A stretch of 64,000 nt of DNA. Source: Nodosilinea nodulosa PCC 7104. GTDB taxonomy: Bacteria > Cyanobacteriota > Cyanobacteriia > Phormidesmidales > Phormidesmidaceae. Each line of letters begins with the position of its first letter. The first letter of the stretch is position 1. Both the position numbers and the translations under genes were made by a program. Location: assembly GCF_000309385.1 (NCBI RefSeq), contig NZ_JH976537.1, positions 3,280,540-3,344,539 of the forward strand, given 5' to 3'. This document shows, in pieces, positions 45,549 through 51,085 of the stretch. The notes beneath the pieces are model-generated. The model was not told the origin of the DNA and did no database searches. It saw only the letters and a list, made by a program, of their open reading frames with translations.

Positions 45549-46748
45549 ATGGCAGACGCTCCCCAATCGATTTGCATTCTCGGCGGCGGCTTTGGCGGCC
45601 TCTACACGGCCCTGCGCCTGAGCCAGCTGCCCTGGGAGGGCACCTCGCCCACCATTACCCTGGTGGACTGCAACGATCGCTTTCTCTTTCTGCCCCTCCT
45701 CTACGAACTGGTCACCGACGAGCTGCAAACCTGGGAAATTGCCCCCCCCTACACCGAACTGCTGGCCGGTACCCCGGTGCAGTTTCGCCAGGCCGCAGTT
45801 GCCGCCATTGATTTGGATCAACACCGGGTCAGCCTCGGCGACGGCATGATGCTCACCTACGATCGCCTGGTGCTGGCCCTGGGGGGCACCACGCCCATGG
45901 ACATGGCCCCCGGCGTGGCCGAGCACGCCCTGGCCTTTCGCACCCTCGACGATGCCTACCAGCTCAAGGAGCGCCTGCGCCTGCTAGAAGCCTCCGACGC
46001 TGAGAAAATCCGCGTGGCGGTGGTGGGCGGCGGCTACAGCGGCGTGGAGCTGGCCTGCAAAGTGGCGGAACATTTAGGAGAGCGCGGCCGCATCCGCCTG
46101 ATTGAACGCACCGACATGATTCTCCGCACCTCGCCAGAGCACAACCGCGAGGTGGCCCAGAAAGCTCTCTCGGACCTGGGCGTGTGGGTTGATCTCGAAA
46201 CCGCCGTGGATAGCGTCACCGCCGACACCATTACCCTCACCTACCGCGAACAGACCGACATTTTGCCCGTCGATCTGGTGCTCTGGACGGTGGGTACTAA
46301 GGTAAACGAGGTGATTGCCAACCTGCCGCTGAAGCACAGCGATCGCCAGCAGGTCGTCGTGCAGCCCACGCTGGAGTCGGTCGATCGCCCCGGCGTGTAT
46401 GCCCTGGGCGATGTGGCCGACTGCCGCGATGCCGAGGGCCAGCAGATGGCCGCCACCGCCCAGGTGGCCCTGCAACAGGCCGACTTTGTGGGGTGGAATA
46501 TCTGGGCAGCTCTGTGCGATCGCCCCCAGCTGCCCTTCCGCTACAACCACCTGGGCGAAATGATGACCCTCGGCACCAGCCGCGCCACCCTCACCGGGCT
46601 AGGCGTGCAGCTCGACGGCGAACTGGCCCACGTGGCGCGCCGCCTGGCCTACCTCTACCGCATGCCCACCTTTAACCACCAGGTGCGCGTCGGCATCAAC
46701 TGGATGACAAAGCCGCTGCGGGATCTGCTGGCGGGGTCTGCCTCTTAG
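45549..46748 (+). CDS. ndbB: Type II NAD(P)H dehydrogenase, NdbB group (demethylphylloquinone reductase)
   Basis: 399 residues with two Rossmann folds: the FAD-binding ICILGGGFGGLYTALRL near the N-terminus and the NAD(P)H-binding VAVVGGGYSGVELACK near 155, plus the FAD-closing GVYALGDVADC. From memory the sequence follows Synechocystis Slr1743 (NdbB) closely (FLPLLYELVTDELQTWEIAP, HLGERGRIRLIER, LYRMPTFNHQVRVGINW). NdbB reduces demethylphylloquinone, allowing its methylation to phylloquinone for photosystem I. No transmembrane helix, as expected of a membrane-associated NDH-2. Complete. Confidence 0.93.
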   Translation: MADAPQSICILGGGFGGLYTALRLSQLPWEGTSPTITLVDCNDRFLFLPLLYELVTDELQTWEIAPPYTELLAGTPVQFRQAAVAAIDLDQHRVSLGDGMMLTYDRLVLALGGTTPMDMAPGVAEHALAFRTLDDAYQLKERLRLLEASDAEKIRVAVVGGGYSGVELACKVAEHLGERGRIRLIERTDMILRTSPEHNREVAQKALSDLGVWVDLETAVDSVTADTITLTYREQTDILPVDLVLWTVGTKVNEVIANLPLKHSDRQQVVVQPTLESVDRPGVYALGDVADCRDAEGQQMAATAQVALQQADFVGWNIWAALCDRPQLPFRYNHLGEMMTLGTSRATLTGLGVQLDGELAHVARRLAYLYRMPTFNHQVRVGINWMTKPLRDLLAGSAS

Positions 46749-46775
46749 CTCGAAATCTAGCGCCCCCAAGCCAGC

Positions 46776-47264
46776 ATTGTCGTCAGCGATACCTCTCCAA
46801 TCTCCAATCTCATCTTAGTGGGACAGATTGATCTGCTCCCCCAGCTTTTTGGTACCGTTATCATCCCCGCCGCCGTTTATCAAGAACTCCTCGCTAACGG
46901 CAAAAATCACCCGGTTACCCAAACCCTACAGTCCCTGGAGTGGCTAGAAATCCGTTCCATCAGCGACCAGGGTCGCGTAGATGCCCTTGAGCGCGATCGC
47001 AACCTTGACCCTGGAGAAGCCAATGCGATCGTCTTAGCGTTAGAGCTTCAAGCTACTCAACCCCTCATCGACGAGCGCTTGGGACGCCTCGAAGCGAAGC
47101 GACAGGGCTTGCGCGTCACCGGCATATTAGGCGTTTTATTGGCGGCCAAGCGGCAAACCTTACTTTCAGAAATTCGCCCAGTCATGAATGCGCTGATTCA
47201 GCAAGCCAACTTTCGCATTAGCCCCCAGCTCTATCGTGAAGTTTTGCAGCTAGCAGGAGAGTAA
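46776..47264 (+). pseudogene. Orphan DUF3368 PIN-like toxin without a normal start codon
   Basis: The conserved N-terminus IVVSDTSPISNLILVGQIDL is encoded in frame from 46776, including the catalytic Asp in SDTSP. However, no ATG, GTG or TTG lies between the upstream stop (46758-46760) and that motif: the expected start position is AGC, followed by ATT. The first standard start in frame is GTG 46818, which would drop the catalytic Asp. The rest (DPGEANAIVLALELQATQPL, IDERLGRLEAKRQGLRVTG) is intact to 47264. The usual upstream UPF0175 antitoxin is absent, as ndbB ends 28 nt before. Either a decayed toxin or one translated from a rare ATT. Confidence 0.75.
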
Positions 47265-47350
47265 CCAGGCTATAGTGAAAAAACTCCTCAAAGCCCTATT
47301 TTCTCGTTTTCTTGTACTGGGCGGCAAAACGTCAAGAGCGGCCAAATTGC

Positions 47351-49405
47351 CTATGATTTACAATTGGCAAGTCTGGATGCAAGAGAAAAGAATCCGCCCA
47401 CCCGTCCACCGCCCAGCATAGGGAGATGACCGACTGGTGCGGAAGTTCTAAAAGTTACATCGGAGTAGTAAATTACGCTATCTATCGAACTGTTCTTCCA
47501 TCGCCAGCCGACTTTGTCGCCAAACTTTTCCCAAGTCTTATCACCCGGATAGTGGCCGTCGAGTTTTGCCCCACACTCAACGTAAATTTGCTTTTGCACG
47601 CTAAAGCCGAATCGCCCCTTACTATAGTTTACCCATAGCTGGTCAATGGTCAGTAGGTCAGCGCAGGGAAAGCTTAATAGCTCTGCATCTCGAATCCAGT
47701 CACCATCTTGGCGACCAACGACCTCCAACATACGGAGATAAGTTTCATAATCAGCGGCTTCCCAGTCACCTGTCTTGAGAAAGCCGTGTAGCTTTCTATA
47801 GTCGATACCTTTATCTGAATTGAGCAAGTCTTTAGCATCAGAGGAAAACGCAGTTTCACACTCCTGAAGCCTGGACATGAGAGTGTGTAGACATTGCATG
47901 CTACCTCCCCAGGCAGGAATGAAGGGCAAGTGCCCTTGAGGAGCTAAATTGCTAAAATCCAGGTCTTTGCGTCTTTTCCAAGCAATTTTGAGCCAGCCTA
48001 CTCTTTCCCCAAAGCAACGAGCAATATCAATATCCAATAACTTGTCTTTGAAATTGTCTCCGCATTCAAGGAGAATCCTCTTTTGCACGGTGAGTCCAAA
48101 ATTTTCATTACTGTACTTTGTCCACAACCTGTCAATGGTCAGTAAATCAGTGCTAGGGAAGTTCGCAAAGTCATCATCAGTTAAATAACCTTCGGTTTCT
48201 TTCCTGAGAACTCGTAATGTGATTGCTTGAGTTTCTTGATCAGCGGCATTCCAGCTACCTATCCTCAACAAATCTCGCAGATTTCTGTAGTCGATTCCTG
48301 TCTCAGATTCCAATAAATCTTCGCTAGCGGTTTCACTGCTCAATACTGGTTCCGGAGAAGTTTCATCAGTTCCACAGAAATCTGCTGTAAGCACATCGTT
48401 AACCGTTGTAGTGGAAGCAGTGACCGACCGGCTTGAGATGTCTCCAGTGTTAGGCGTCTGAATCTTGTCAGGTTCCTGAATCGCTCGATTCTGGAGCTGA
48501 CTACGAATCTCTGCCCACAGGTTCATCACCTCCAGATCGGCTCCCATTGCCAGGGCATTAAGCCGAATGCAGATTTGCTCAGCCAGGGCTGGATTGGTCT
48601 GCTTATATCGATGTACATCCAGCTTTAGCAGGTCGATATCGGCCTGTCGGGCATACTGCGGAATCAGAATAAAGTGCTGCTTTTCGATCGGGTCTACGCT
48701 GATGCGGGGCACCTGGGCCGGAGCTTTGCCGTACTGTTGGCAGAGAGCGGGTACTCGCTGCGTTAAGTAGCGGCCCAGGCGCTCTACAGTGGCGCAGCTG
48801 CGCTCTCCTGATAGCTGCAGGGCTTCCAAAAAAGCATAGGTAAACGCCCCCTGCCCCAGCTCCTCAATTTCCCAGGCTTTTTGCGTTGGCTGGCACGAGG
48901 CCAGAGTAATCACGCCCTTCTGGCTGTCTCGGCCAATGCCTAACCCGTCGCGGCTGCCCTGGCTGCGGCAGGCATCTAAAATCATAATCACGTTATCGGC
49001 CCCGCAGCGGCTGAGGCGCTCTTGCACATAGTTCACCGTCAGCCCGGCGATCACCTCGGCCCCGCGCGAGTTGGCATCCATCGGCATCAGGTAATCGCGG
49101 TCTTGGTGGCGCTCGCCATGGCCCGCAAAGAAAAACCAGCAGTTGTCGCCCGTGCTCAAAAAGGGGCTCTCGAAGCGATCTTGCAAAAAGGTGATCAGGT
49201 TGCCGTAGGTGGGTTGGGTAGGAATGGTTTGACCCGTAGGCAGAGTCAGCGGAGGTGAATTGTCGGTAAAAAAGCACACCTCGAACCCGGCACTGGCAAA
49301 AAAATCTTTGACCCGCTCGGCATCTTGCTTGGCATACTTCAGCGGAGCAAAGTTCACCGGGTTGTAGTCGTTAATGCCAATGACCAGCGCCCAGTTTTTC
49401 GCCAT
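47351..49405 (-). CDS. Caspase-like protease fused to two GUN4 domains
   Basis: 684 residues. Residues 1-250 are a peptidase C14 (orthocaspase) domain with the catalytic dyad His96 (FFAGHGE) and Cys146 (ILDACRSQG). A helical and then low-complexity linker spans 251-364. Two tandem GUN4 domains follow, 365-517 and 529-681, each with GIDYR-x-L, a LLTID-x-LW-x-x-Y-S motif, and G-x-VGW then GHLP. GUN4 binds Mg-porphyrin intermediates and stimulates Mg-chelatase, or serves as a signalling module in fusion proteins. Cyanobacterial caspases fused to other domains are known; this duplication is unusual. The 3' part has lower GC than the 5' part. Likely cotranscribed with the small gene 21 nt upstream. 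Confidence 0.93.
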   Translation of the reverse strand: MAKNWALVIGINDYNPVNFAPLKYAKQDAERVKDFFASAGFEVCFFTDNSPPLTLPTGQTIPTQPTYGNLITFLQDRFESPFLSTGDNCWFFFAGHGERHQDRDYLMPMDANSRGAEVIAGLTVNYVQERLSRCGADNVIMILDACRSQGSRDGLGIGRDSQKGVITLASCQPTQKAWEIEELGQGAFTYAFLEALQLSGERSCATVERLGRYLTQRVPALCQQYGKAPAQVPRISVDPIEKQHFILIPQYARQADIDLLKLDVHRYKQTNPALAEQICIRLNALAMGADLEVMNLWAEIRSQLQNRAIQEPDKIQTPNTGDISSRSVTASTTTVNDVLTADFCGTDETSPEPVLSSETASEDLLESETGIDYRNLRDLLRIGSWNAADQETQAITLRVLRKETEGYLTDDDFANFPSTDLLTIDRLWTKYSNENFGLTVQKRILLECGDNFKDKLLDIDIARCFGERVGWLKIAWKRRKDLDFSNLAPQGHLPFIPAWGGSMQCLHTLMSRLQECETAFSSDAKDLLNSDKGIDYRKLHGFLKTGDWEAADYETYLRMLEVVGRQDGDWIRDAELLSFPCADLLTIDQLWVNYSKGRFGFSVQKQIYVECGAKLDGHYPGDKTWEKFGDKVGWRWKNSSIDSVIYYSDVTFRTSAPVGHLPMLGGGRVGGFFSLASRLANCKS

Positions 49406-49426
49406 CTCGCCAAATAAGCTACTGAT

Positions 49427-49780
49427 TTAAGCCTTTTTCTTGAAGCGCAGCGTCATTGCGCCGCTGCCGCCCACCTTTGTGCCCGATCCTAACAGGCTCA
49501 ACTGCCCTTCGCCACTGACCTCAACTGACAGCTCAATCTCGTCAAGCTCCATACTGCCGAGTTCCGTCGCGCGAGCCTGGGCGTGCTGTATCACCCGACC
49601 CATGGTTTGCAAAAAGTCGGCCATGCCCTGCTCTAGCTTCTCCGCCGAAACCGGAATGCCAGGACGACTGACCGCTGATGTACGGGGTTGGTCATCGGCG
49701 TAGGGGTTGCGAGGATTGTTGCCATCCCGCCCCCCACTAGGGGCTGTATCTGTAATGACGTAGATATAGTCGTCAGCCAT
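49427..49780 (-). CDS. Small protein with Pepco/Trypco-like character, caspase partner
   Basis: 117 residues from ATG 49780 (MADDYIYVITDTAPSGGRDG). The N-terminus is polar and disordered. A helical segment follows (VSAEKLEQGMADFLQTMGRV), then a C-terminal strand-rich part (MELDEIELSVEVSGEGQLSL, LGSGTKVGGSGAMTLRFKKK). This ending is typical of the small peptidase-associated Pepco/Trypco families described in bacterial conflict and apoptosis-like systems (assignment from memory). The next gene downstream, 21 nt away, is a caspase, which fits the association. It is likely a substrate, adaptor or regulator of the caspase. Confidence 0.72.
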   Translation of the reverse strand: MADDYIYVITDTAPSGGRDGNNPRNPYADDQPRTSAVSRPGIPVSAEKLEQGMADFLQTMGRVIQHAQARATELGSMELDEIELSVEVSGEGQLSLLGSGTKVGGSGAMTLRFKKKA

Positions 49781-49978
49781 GGCAGATTTCAGTAATGACG
49801 GAGGTTGCGTGCTCTGCAAGTTTAACCTTCAAAACTGGGTTCCCTCATATCCTTCTTGAGCTGTGGCAGTGATCACGCTCAGAACAACGCTCTAGTCGCC
49901 CGAAATGCAGCCGGTGAAAAACTCCCTGCAACAGTCTGTCATAATGCATCTGAGAATTTTGGACGCCAGGACAGGCCC

Positions 49979-51085
49979 ATGAAAATCAACGACAAGCCCA
50001 CCAGAACCATTCGCCTGCACGAAGATAATCCTCGCGTGGTGCAGGTGATCGATCAGCGCCAGCTGCCCCACCAGCTCACCTGGATGGACCTGAATTCAGT
50101 GAATGAAGCCGCCTACGCGATCAAAGACATGGTGGTGCGGGGCGCGCCGCTGATTGGGGCCACCGCCGCCATGGGCATGTACCTGGCTGCCCTGGAAGCC
50201 GTTGATGTAGACGACTTTCGCGACTTCTTGCACCAGGCTGCCCACACCCTGGGCCAGACCCGCCCCACCGCCGTCAATTTGCACTGGGCGCTGACCTCCC
50301 AGCTCCACGCCCTGCGAGAGGTGGCCACGGCCCCAGAGGCGGTCGATCGCCTGCGCCAAAATGCCGAAGCCATCATCGACGCCGATGAAGAGCAGTGCCG
50401 CCAGATCGGCCTCCACGGCGTCAAATTGATCGAGGAGATCCACGATCGCACCGGGCAGACCGTCAACATTTTGACTCACTGCAATGCTGGCTGGCTGGCC
50501 TGCGTCGACTGGGGCACCGCCACCTCGCCCATCTACCACGCCCACGATCGCGGCATTCCGGTGCATGTCTGGGTCGATGAGACTCGTCCGCGTAACCAGG
50601 GGGCCAAGCTCACCGCCTGGGAACTGGGCCAGCACGGCGTACCCCACACGGTGATACCCGACAACGCCGGGGGGCACCTGATGCAGCACGGCATGGTCGA
50701 TCTGGCGATCGTGGGCAGCGATCGCACCACCCGCCAGGGCGATGTCGCCAACAAAATCGGCACCTACCTCAAGGCCCTAGCCGCCCACGACAACGGCGTG
50801 CCCTTCTACGTCGCTCTGCCCTCCTCTACCCTCGACTGGACGCTGCGGGATGGGGTGAAAGAAATCCCCATCGAGCAGCGCAGCCCGGACGAGGTGAAAT
50901 ATATGGATGGCCTCTCGCCCCACGGCGTTACTTCGGTGCTGATTTGCCCTGAGTCTTCCCCAGCGGCCAACTATGGGTTTGACGTTACGCCCGCCCGCCT
51001 GGTGACGGGGCTGATTACCGAACGGGGTATTTGCCCAGCCTCGGAGGCTGGGCTGCTGGGCCTGTTTCCCGAGCAGACGGCATAA
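49979..51085 (+). CDS. mtnA: Methylthioribose-1-phosphate isomerase
   Basis: A methionine-salvage enzyme converting MTR-1-P to MTRu-1-P. The start is ATG 49979 (MKINDKPTRTIRL); the frame extends upstream but without conserved sequence. Motifs: VRGAPLIGATAAMG, THCNAGWLACVDWGTA with the catalytic Cys, VDETRPRNQGAKLTAWEL, and VGSDRTTRQGDVANKIGTY with the catalytic Asp. 368 residues. No other mtn gene is next to it. A perfect hairpin follows the stop directly. Confidence 0.95.
   Translation: MKINDKPTRTIRLHEDNPRVVQVIDQRQLPHQLTWMDLNSVNEAAYAIKDMVVRGAPLIGATAAMGMYLAALEAVDVDDFRDFLHQAAHTLGQTRPTAVNLHWALTSQLHALREVATAPEAVDRLRQNAEAIIDADEEQCRQIGLHGVKLIEEIHDRTGQTVNILTHCNAGWLACVDWGTATSPIYHAHDRGIPVHVWVDETRPRNQGAKLTAWELGQHGVPHTVIPDNAGGHLMQHGMVDLAIVGSDRTTRQGDVANKIGTYLKALAAHDNGVPFYVALPSSTLDWTLRDGVKEIPIEQRSPDEVKYMDGLSPHGVTSVLICPESSPAANYGFDVTPARLVTGLITERGICPASEAGLLGLFPEQTA

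What the first reader, a model, noticed from the sequence alone, without database searches (positions are those of the whole stretch)
47351..49780. Two-gene unit: small Pepco-like protein and caspase fused to tandem GUN4 domains
Seen: a 117-residue protein 21 nt before a caspase with intact His96/Cys146 and two C-terminal GUN4 domains. Known: GUN4 binds Mg-porphyrins and regulates chlorophyll synthesis; caspase-like proteases and their small associated proteins take part in cell-death or immunity circuits. A protease gated by tetrapyrrole state would join photo-oxidative stress to programmed death or defence. This is the most promising candidate system in the window.
Basis: partly seen in the sequence, partly recalled or inferred. 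Interest (0 to 1): 0.76.

Follow-up and report, generated by a model that had tools for sequence, protein, structure and literature searches.

The report
Hypervariable GUN4 tails on immune effectors
A cyanobacterial death-type protease and its small partner carry GUN4 domains from a family whose ligand-pocket end has been replaced, again and again, by random-looking DNA between conserved borders, sometimes beside one particular transposase clade, which looks like an undescribed way for bacteria to vary an immune sensor.

Summary
In detail: Pepco (117 aa), 21 nt, then a caspase (His96/Cys146) with two GUN4 units, minus strand. A caspase ORF follows Pepco in 36 of 41 loci, but its C-terminal domain is swapped (FGE-sulfatase, GUN4, STAND, DnaJ_C, RDD). 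Tetrapyrrole gating is weakened: binding residues fall where fused GUN4s are replaced. There the gene end after G-H-L-P is a cassette: conserved border, G/T-rich tract of 25–155 nt without codon signature, conserved DNA element ending the protein in any of three frames. In 181 sites 8 tracts have an in-frame stop (112 expected). Of 170 pairs with ≥88% identical upstream DNA, 164 have unrelated tracts, 6 the same, none partial; at ≥98% identity 5 of 6 are the same, so turnover is not instantaneous. Effectors fused to it are kinases, TIR, caspase, NACHT. One RAYT (Y1 transposase) clade has GUN4 beside it in 19 of 25 loci found by RAYT alone (related RAYTs 0 of 6), but most element-bearing sites lack a RAYT. 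The window copy is old: decayed element, no RAYT. I read it as a hypervariable sensor on immune effectors; the RAYT as cutter is likely but unproven.

The parts
49427..49780 (-). Pepco protein gene, 117 aa; predicted N-terminal strand, low-confidence 13-37, long helix 46-73, C-terminal strands
   Evidence: Pfam PF24393 99.3 bits; weak Trypco1 similarity E 0.0078, below its cut-off; model mean pLDDT 67.3
47351..49405 (-). caspase-GUN4-GUN4 gene, 684 aa, 21 nt after Pepco
   Evidence: model mean pLDDT 72.9
48695..49396 (-). caspase (Peptidase_C14) domain, aa 4-237, His96 and Cys146 present
   Evidence: Foldseek best match MALT1 8v4x E 1.9e-10
47924..48301 (-). GUN4 unit 1, about aa 369-494, ending in G-H-L-P (47924-47935)
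47858..47923 (-). segment after G-H-L-P of unit 1 (replaces the Synechocystis N211/R214 region); no recognisable element
   Evidence: no HMM hit here
47420..47818 (-). GUN4 unit 2, about aa 530-662, ending in G-H-L-P; 5' border GGTCATCTCCC at 47421-47431
47390..47420 (-). variable G-rich tract of unit 2 (about 31 nt)
   Evidence: read, bounded by the 5' border and the element
47348..47389 (-). decayed copy of the conserved 3' element (protein end S-L-A-S-R-L-A-N-C-K-S, stop, and just past it)
   Evidence: nhmmer hit 47387-47348, HMM positions 3-42, E 0.0012, 19.2 bits

Best explanation
The window unit is an effector-sensor pair of a cyanobacterial conflict system. Pepco is the constant partner of a caspase effector (regulator or docking subunit, inferred), and the C-terminal domain is the swappable sensor. 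GUN4 in this slot is not the chlorophyll regulator but a recognition scaffold whose pocket end is a hypervariable cassette. Shown: fixed DNA borders; a tract replaced wholesale between relatives; a reading frame kept open through the tract; a 3' element that ends the protein in all three frames; N-terminal kinase, TIR, caspase or NACHT partners; one RAYT (Y1/HUH single-strand transposase) clade convergent beside part of such genes. Inferred: the RAYT nicks at C|T dinucleotides around the element hairpins, the tract is lost, and an unidentified polymerase adds non-templated G/T-rich sequence before rejoining; variants with an open tract keep a new specificity, and ligand binding turns on the effector. 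In the window the element is decayed and no RAYT is near, so this copy is probably fixed. Likelihoods: hypervariable translated cassette about 0.95; immune-type sensor role about 0.6; RAYT as the cutter about 0.4.
For: Cassette: 181 usable sites out of 209: tract 25-155 nt, lengths mod 3 = 49/57/75, composition A .18 C .11 G .38 T .33, nearly equal at the three codon positions. Replacement (merging only sites identical over all shared flank, 183 sites): of 170 pairs with >=88% identity over 150 nt upstream, tract same in 6, partial in 0, unrelated in 164; of all 16,653 pairs, 8 related. Syntenic examples: L146/L190 upstream 97.0% over 263 nt, downstream 96.8% over 1024 nt, tracts 48 and 102 nt unrelated; L153/L202 upstream 92.7% over 1399 nt, tracts 84 and 69. 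DNA-level border: CTC in 118 of 169 CTN Leu codons of the motif, against 317 of 1315 CTN codons upstream. Found without using the element: 45 non-canonical GUN4s have 0.09 identity after the motif, 3 canonical 0.89. Effectors: of 106 element-bearing GUN4 proteins (of 113 candidates), Pkinase 64, TIR_2 22, Peptidase_C14 14, CHAT 1; own genome two TIR-GUN4 and one NACHT-GUN4. RAYT: Y1_Tnp in 5 of 5 scanned; catalytic motifs in 15 of 16; GUN4 beside the RAYT in 19 of 25 loci found by RAYT alone, 0 of 6 for related RAYTs; genomes with the clade have the element in 22 of 31, the others in 31 of 355 (tallied by hand; Fisher p 1e-14). Module swap.
Against: 31 of the 53 element-bearing genomes show no RAYT of this clade at E<=1e-40, and only 26 of 144 sites with >=1000 nt downstream have a RAYT-like gene there; 6 of 25 clade RAYTs have no GUN4 within 1500 nt. 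Turnover is slow against the closest divergences: at >=98% upstream identity 5 of 6 pairs keep the tract, and L344/L250 and L164/L296 keep related tracts at 83-84% flank identity. No polymerase that could add the tract was found. Most sites were collected by matching the element, so its conservation is partly ascertainment. Many compared pairs are paralogs; one genome per species was at hand, so no within-species rate could be measured. The second hairpin has weak covariation (58% paired; column shuffles mean 55%, max 57%), and the own-genome element folds no better than 56 of 200 shuffles. The window element is decayed and no RAYT lies in the window. No experiment ties these proteins to defence.
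Confidence: 0.55

Rival explanations
1. Selfish RAYT/REP element: the RAYT and its hairpin element are parasites that use the 3' ends of GUN4 genes as a harmless landing site; the tract is junction debris tolerated because the GUN4 end is dispensable.
For: RAYT + element + a stop in every frame is what a mild insertion would look like; many elements lack a RAYT, as REPs do; element copies with no GUN4 detected upstream exist (L181, L175, L173; L173 looks like a GUN4 remnant); tails differ freely.
Against: Dispensable debris should tolerate in-frame stops, yet 8 of 181 are seen against 112 expected; the tract is wholly replaced while the flanks stay; Trp is 1.5-fold over and Cys half of what base composition gives; this RAYT clade is tied to GUN4, related RAYTs are not.
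Confidence: 0.25
2. Tetrapyrrole-gated protease (first reader; also proposed for GUN4 fusions in PMC7159879, passages): GUN4 binds porphyrin or bilin and gates the caspase by photosynthetic state.
For: GUN4 family match is clear (Foldseek 1z3y and 4xkc); unit 2 has Arg at the R214 position and Tyr at W192.
Against: N211 and R214 positions are inside the hypervariable segment; unit 1 lacks all four tested residues; GUN4 alternates with FGE-sulfatase, STAND, DnaJ_C and RDD in the same position, and with FGE-sulfatase in the closest congener.
Confidence: 0.12
3. Diversity-generating retroelement acting in trans: an RT copies a template with adenine mutations into the GUN4 tail.
For: DGRs exist in cyanobacteria and vary the FGE/C-type lectin domain that alternates with GUN4 (PMC7517822, PMC7159879, passages); Avd-like proteins match at E<=0.001 in 9 of 10 element-bearing genomes, above cut-off in 4.
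Against: Tract length varies 25-155 nt and unrelated tracts share no positions; none of the 25 largest neighbour clusters looked like an RT by eye; no element or GUN4 within 1500 nt of 9 RT/Avd loci examined.
Confidence: 0.05
4. Gene conversion from silent cassettes, as in antigenic variation.
For: Wholesale replacement between fixed borders is typical of it.
Against: One 81-nt own tract searched in the whole own genome matched only itself fully (next best E 0.006 over 29 nt); of 16,653 site pairs only 8 have related tracts, those listed with related upstream DNA.
Confidence: 0.05

Closest known systems
Caspase-GUN4 orthocaspases of cyanobacteria (PMC2853523, PMC8283722; passages)
   Same: same domain order, catalytic dyad intact; GUN4 in 29 of 473 orthocaspases in PMC8283722
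   Different: the passages seen do not mention the Pepco partner, the C-terminal swap or a variable tail
Trypco-protease and VMAP/STAND conflict systems (PMC7159879, PMC8195603; passages)
   Same: peptidase with a small co-occurring gene and exchangeable domains; GUN4 named as a cyanobacterial component
   Different: here a stand-alone Pepco-caspase pair; the word Pepco has 0 occurrences in both papers
Diversity-generating retroelements
   Same: targeted hypervariation of a ligand-binding protein end, in immune-like fusions
   Different: no fixed positions, variable length and frame, no template found; a Y1 transposase beside part of the targets instead
RAYT/REP systems (REPtrons; PMC8266576, PMC6006769; passages)
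   Same: Y1 HUH transposase with NH[VI]H and Tyr motifs, short hairpins beside C/T-rich DNA
   Different: the element is the coding end of one gene family and the RAYT is convergent with it; the passages seen give no link of RAYTs to protein variation
V(D)J junctional diversity of vertebrates (recalled)
   Same: random nucleotides of any length between two fixed borders at a binding-site loop
   Different: no segment choice, different enzyme family, seen here only between species, not in somatic cells

Membership tests
Orthocaspase (Peptidase_C14) with GUN4 | caspase domain with His/Cys dyad | tested here: met
Orthocaspase (Peptidase_C14) with GUN4 | proteolytic activity | not testable with these tools
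   needs enzyme assay
Pepco | Pfam PF24393 above gathering score, beside a peptidase gene | tested here: met
   caspase adjacency 36 of 41 loci
Tetrapyrrole-binding GUN4 | porphyrin residues (Syn W192, F196, R214) | tested here: not met
   unit 1 none of three; unit 2 only the R214 position, with Tyr at W192 (unit 1 counted by hand)
Tetrapyrrole-binding GUN4 | bilin motif LxNxLR | tested here: not met
   absent in both units; a regular expression found it in 3 of 48 GUN4s, the 3 canonical ones
Diversity-generating retroelement | template and variable repeat of equal length, differing at template adenines | tested here: not met
   variable tract length, no shared positions, no template seen
Diversity-generating retroelement | RT linked to target or template | tested here: inconclusive
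   no RT seen among the 25 largest neighbour clusters (by eye); 9 RT/Avd loci without element; whole genomes not searched for a template
RAYT/REP | Y1_Tnp domain with HUH and Tyr motifs | tested here: met
   5 of 5; 15 of 16
RAYT/REP | hairpin with GTAG/GTGG 0-2 nt at its 5' foot | tested here: inconclusive
   consensus has GTA(A/G) just 5' of the second hairpin; covariation weak; the first hairpin was in the search pattern and could not be tested
RAYT/REP | RAYT cleaves its element | not testable with these tools
   needs biochemistry
Anti-phage defence system | shown protection against phage | not testable with these tools
   only profile matches: PADLOC PD-T4-6, caspase, ThsB-type TIR

The most novel reading that the evidence does not exclude
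Cyanobacteria run a transposase-driven receptor-diversification system: a domesticated RAYT cuts the 3' end of GUN4 genes at fixed borders, random nucleotides are added in any frame, and a three-frame terminator makes any open product a complete protein. This gives kinase, TIR, caspase and NACHT immune effectors new pocket loops, a bacterial counterpart of junctional diversity that is not a retroelement.
Probability: 0.32. Interest if true: 0.96.

Novelty: categorically new. Interest (0 to 1): 0.86.

Why it matters
Targeted protein hypervariation in bacteria is known mainly from retroelements (DGRs) and from recombination or slippage (recalled). A further route, using a single-strand transposase clade and non-templated sequence of free length and frame, would be a new kind of diversifying machinery, acting on a domain usually treated as a chlorophyll regulator. 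It would explain why cyanobacterial kinases, TIRs and caspases carry GUN4, and it can be tested with one gene deletion. Even if the RAYT is only a passenger, GUN4 fusions annotated as tetrapyrrole sensors need re-reading.

Tried and rejected
DGR template: RVT_1 search of the own genome gave 4 RTs; none has the element or GUN4 within the 1500-nt flanks. Silent donors: one tract against the own genome, full match only to itself. Viral origin: the exact element pattern is in 0 viral contigs. Tract as captured coding DNA: rejected, because the three codon positions have nearly the same composition. Tract as slippage of a repeat: rejected as the general source, because none of 170 close pairs has a partly similar tract, though L044/L045 contain a real tandem repeat and L137/L294 differ mainly in the last ~20 nt. 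Known RNA family over 46700-50200: none at gathering score. Pepco fold: no convincing PDB match (best E 2.5), so its mechanism stays inferred. PD-T4-6: the PADLOC model hit by GUN4 (PDLC04062, 450 positions) includes a GUN4-like end; whether the tested E. coli protein has one was not checked. Papers: ten queries; no listed paper was found, from titles, abstract starts and the passages read, to join GUN4 with a RAYT or with tail hypervariation. Only open PMC papers and no preprints were covered; of the cited papers I saw passages (for PMC10156173 also abstract and outline).

Dropped rows and corrections: 28 of 209 sites (no 5' border within 2 mismatches, tract >160 nt, short upstream, or second element of a tandem). 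Searches merged sites identical just before the element, which undercounts same-tract pairs; one search recounts with stricter merging (same 6 instead of 4, unrelated 164 in both), and by it I lowered the novel-case odds from 0.35 to 0.32. 7 of 113 ORFs were left out before A2 (duplicates or length limit); 3 of 44 Pepco matches not fetched; RAYT matches without a locus were not inspected; Pepco-caspases L070 and L071 were not Pfam-scanned, and L048, L059, L065 are truncated; L063's FGE part was seen by eye only.
Full report
1. What is there. The window is part of one cyanobacterial chromosome (G000:C1:3280540-3344539). On the minus strand a 117-aa gene (49427-49780) is followed after 21 nt by a 684-aa gene (47351-49405). 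Pfam names them Pepco and Peptidase_C14 plus two GUN4 domains, all well over the cut-offs. His96 and Cys146 are present and invariant in nine caspase-GUN4 proteins. The AlphaFold model has mean pLDDT 72.9; Foldseek finds MALT1 paracaspases for the protease and solved GUN4 structures, including a Mg-porphyrin complex, for the rest.

2. Pepco-caspase is a module with a swappable end. Pepco occurs in 34 of 292 sampled genomes of the phylum. In 41 inspected loci (of 44 matches) a caspase ORF lies within 700 nt downstream in 36, within 60 nt in 31. Among these 36 the C-terminal domain is FGE-sulfatase in 17, GUN4 in 10 (one, L063, with an FGE-like part seen by eye), and STAND NTPase, DnaJ_C, RDD and iHD-CE/Hsp90-associated in 1 each; 5 are unscanned or truncated. 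In the closest congener found, the Pepco (E 4e-59) and caspase (69% identical over aa 1-377) are kept, but the end is FGE-sulfatase-like (the end recognised by eye, not Pfam-scanned). FGE-sulfatase is the C-type-lectin fold that DGRs vary in cyanobacterial conflict systems (PMC7159879, PMC10907252, passages). So GUN4 sits in a sensor slot. Pepco is weakly similar to Trypco1 (E 0.0078, below cut-off), a small partner of trypsin-type conflict proteases.

3. The GUN4 units mostly lack the known tetrapyrrole residues. Against Synechocystis GUN4, W192/F196/N211/R214 are R/L/P/G in unit 1 (counted by hand) and Y/V/G/R in unit 2. F196 and R214 contribute to porphyrin binding (PMC8967248) and N211 to bilin binding (PMC10156173; passages). 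The latter paper also notes that paralogs lack the bilin motif.

4. The tail is hypervariable. In GUN4 domains fused to other modules, the residues after the conserved G-H-L-P are unrelated. Among 45 non-canonical GUN4s found through GUN4, Pepco or RAYT searches, mean identity is 0.34 in the 12 residues before and 0.09 in the 12 after; 3 canonical GUN4s give 0.86 and 0.89 (motif misplaced in 2 of the 45 rows). At DNA level there are three parts: a border GGNCAYCTNCC; a tract rich in G and T; and a conserved element TCTTCTCTCGCRTCGAGACTTGTARA that continues past the stop. The element is read as LLSRRDL-stop, LFSRVETCKL-stop or SSLASRLVNCNI-stop, according to tract length.

5. Statistics of the tract. 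181 usable sites (92 from earlier loci, 89 from the named-genome scan): length 25-155 nt, median 59; length mod 3 is 49/57/75 (p 0.05 against equal). Composition is A .18 C .11 G .38 T .33 and nearly the same at all three codon positions, while the upstream coding DNA shows a codon signature. Yet only 8 tracts have a stop in the reading frame, against 120 and 109 in the other frames, and 111.9 +/- 5.9 when each tract is shuffled. The tract is therefore random-looking DNA that is translated. Its amino acids roughly follow base composition, with Trp 1.5-fold over and Cys half.

6. Replacement is all or none. After merging only sites identical over all shared flank (183 sites), 170 pairs have at least 88% identity over the preceding 150 nt: 6 share the tract, 0 are partial, 164 are unrelated. 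By upstream identity: >=98%, 5 same and 1 unrelated; 95-98%, 1 and 17; 92-95%, 0 and 45; 88-92%, 0 and 101. Turnover is thus fast on the scale of 2-5% divergence, but not within it. Of all 16,653 pairs, 8 are related; the 6 listed have upstream identity 0.83-0.99. So tracts are not copied from a common donor or template. The best syntenic case, two genomes of one genus (Microcystis, inferred because the contig of L046 has the length of the named contig of L301), has 97.0% identity over 263 nt upstream and 96.8% over 1024 nt downstream with unrelated tracts of 48 and 102 nt; the 48-nt one starts with an in-frame stop. Counter-cases: L137/L139, L140/L188 and L203/L207 keep the same tract, and L137/L294 differ mainly in the last part next to the element.

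7. Borders are conserved as DNA. Among CTN Leu codons of G-H-L-P, CTC is 118 of 169, against 317 of 1315 upstream. As single-stranded DNA a consensus-like copy forms a 5-bp and a 7-bp hairpin (z -2.5), the own-genome copy the same shape without excess stability (z -0.5). The second hairpin is paired in 58% of cells against 22-32% when slid, but only slightly above column shuffles. Most sites were collected by this element, so its information content (1.76 bits per base) is partly ascertainment; the 25 bases after it, not in the search pattern, still hold 0.83 bits against 0.45 at upstream third positions.

8. The partners are immune-type effectors. Of 106 element-bearing GUN4 proteins, 64 match Pkinase, 22 TIR_2, 14 Peptidase_C14 and 1 CHAT. 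The own genome has two TIR-GUN4 and one NACHT-GUN4. PADLOC gives PD-T4-6 for the kinase forms and Thoeris-like or SAVED-TIR models for the TIR forms; these are profile names, not tests.

9. A linked transposase clade. Clustering of neighbours showed a RAYT family in 14 of 116 loci; it is Y1_Tnp in 5 of 5 scanned. In 144 sites with at least 1000 nt downstream, 26 have a RAYT-like gene, all convergent, median 118 nt past the element. Starting from the RAYT instead, GUN4 is the convergent neighbour in 19 of 25 loci of this clade and 13 have a recognisable element (E<=0.003), while related RAYTs of 42-47% identity have GUN4 in 0 of 6. In the own genome both close members sit beside element-bearing GUN4 genes. 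Genomes with the clade carry the element in 22 of 31 cases, others in 31 of 355. TnpA-REP proteins cut single-stranded DNA at C|T beside a hairpin and leave a 3'-OH that can prime synthesis (PMC8266576, passages). Both borders here are C/T-rich: CACCTCCC and TCTCTTCTCTCG. That the RAYT makes the cut is inference; 31 of 53 element genomes have no such RAYT at the threshold used.

10. The window copy. Unit 2 has a G-rich tract of about 31 nt and a decayed element (E 0.0012); unit 1 has no recognisable element; no RAYT lies in the window. Other Pepco-caspase-GUN4 genes have fresh elements (L046, L060) or an adjacent RAYT (L044, L045). So the window is an old, probably fixed member of the family.

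11. Verdict. The two-gene unit on its own is a new example of known parts. The variable GUN4 cassette, its three-frame terminator and its RAYT are, as far as the ten paper searches show, undescribed. I place them outside DGRs (equal-length template/variable repeats tested and not met) and silent-cassette conversion (no shared tracts; donors tested for one tract only), and outside plain REP biology, which in the passages seen has no role in varying a protein.

Noticed in passing
46818-47264 (+): 148-aa DUF3368 gene (PADLOC PDC-S70, E 4e-53; PIN/VapC-like from recall) convergent with the caspase-GUN4 gene, in the place where some relatives carry a RAYT.
   Followed up: partly
L066:7549-7964 (-): Pepco-caspase-DnaJ_C gene followed in another frame by a GUN4 domain that lacks G-H-L-P and tract and runs straight into the element: a possible empty-tract product.
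   Followed up: partly
L078:5097-5753 (+): Pepco fused to the first half of a GUN4 domain; the next ORF has Hpt and a weak match to the second GUN4 half.
   Followed up: no
L147:1430-1530; L165:2487-2570: Two elements in tandem 70 and 51 nt apart; in L046 unit 2 and L086 the 5' border GGACACCTCCC is duplicated instead. Such doubles may record the mechanism.
   Followed up: no
L044, L045: Caspase-GUN4 tail with a true tandem repeat (GFLGVRRGS twice) that runs on past the usual end and overlaps the RAYT gene.
   Followed up: no
L076, L077: Pepco beside iHD-CE and wHTH-Hsp90-associated proteins, one fused to a caspase in a 1797-aa protein.
   Followed up: no
L181:4153; L175:2363: Element copies with no GUN4 detected upstream: possible solo elements or remnants.
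   Followed up: no
PADLOC PDLC04062 (PD-T4-6): The model's positions from about 300 to 450 match GUN4, so a kinase-GUN4 architecture is already filed under an anti-phage name.
   Followed up: partly
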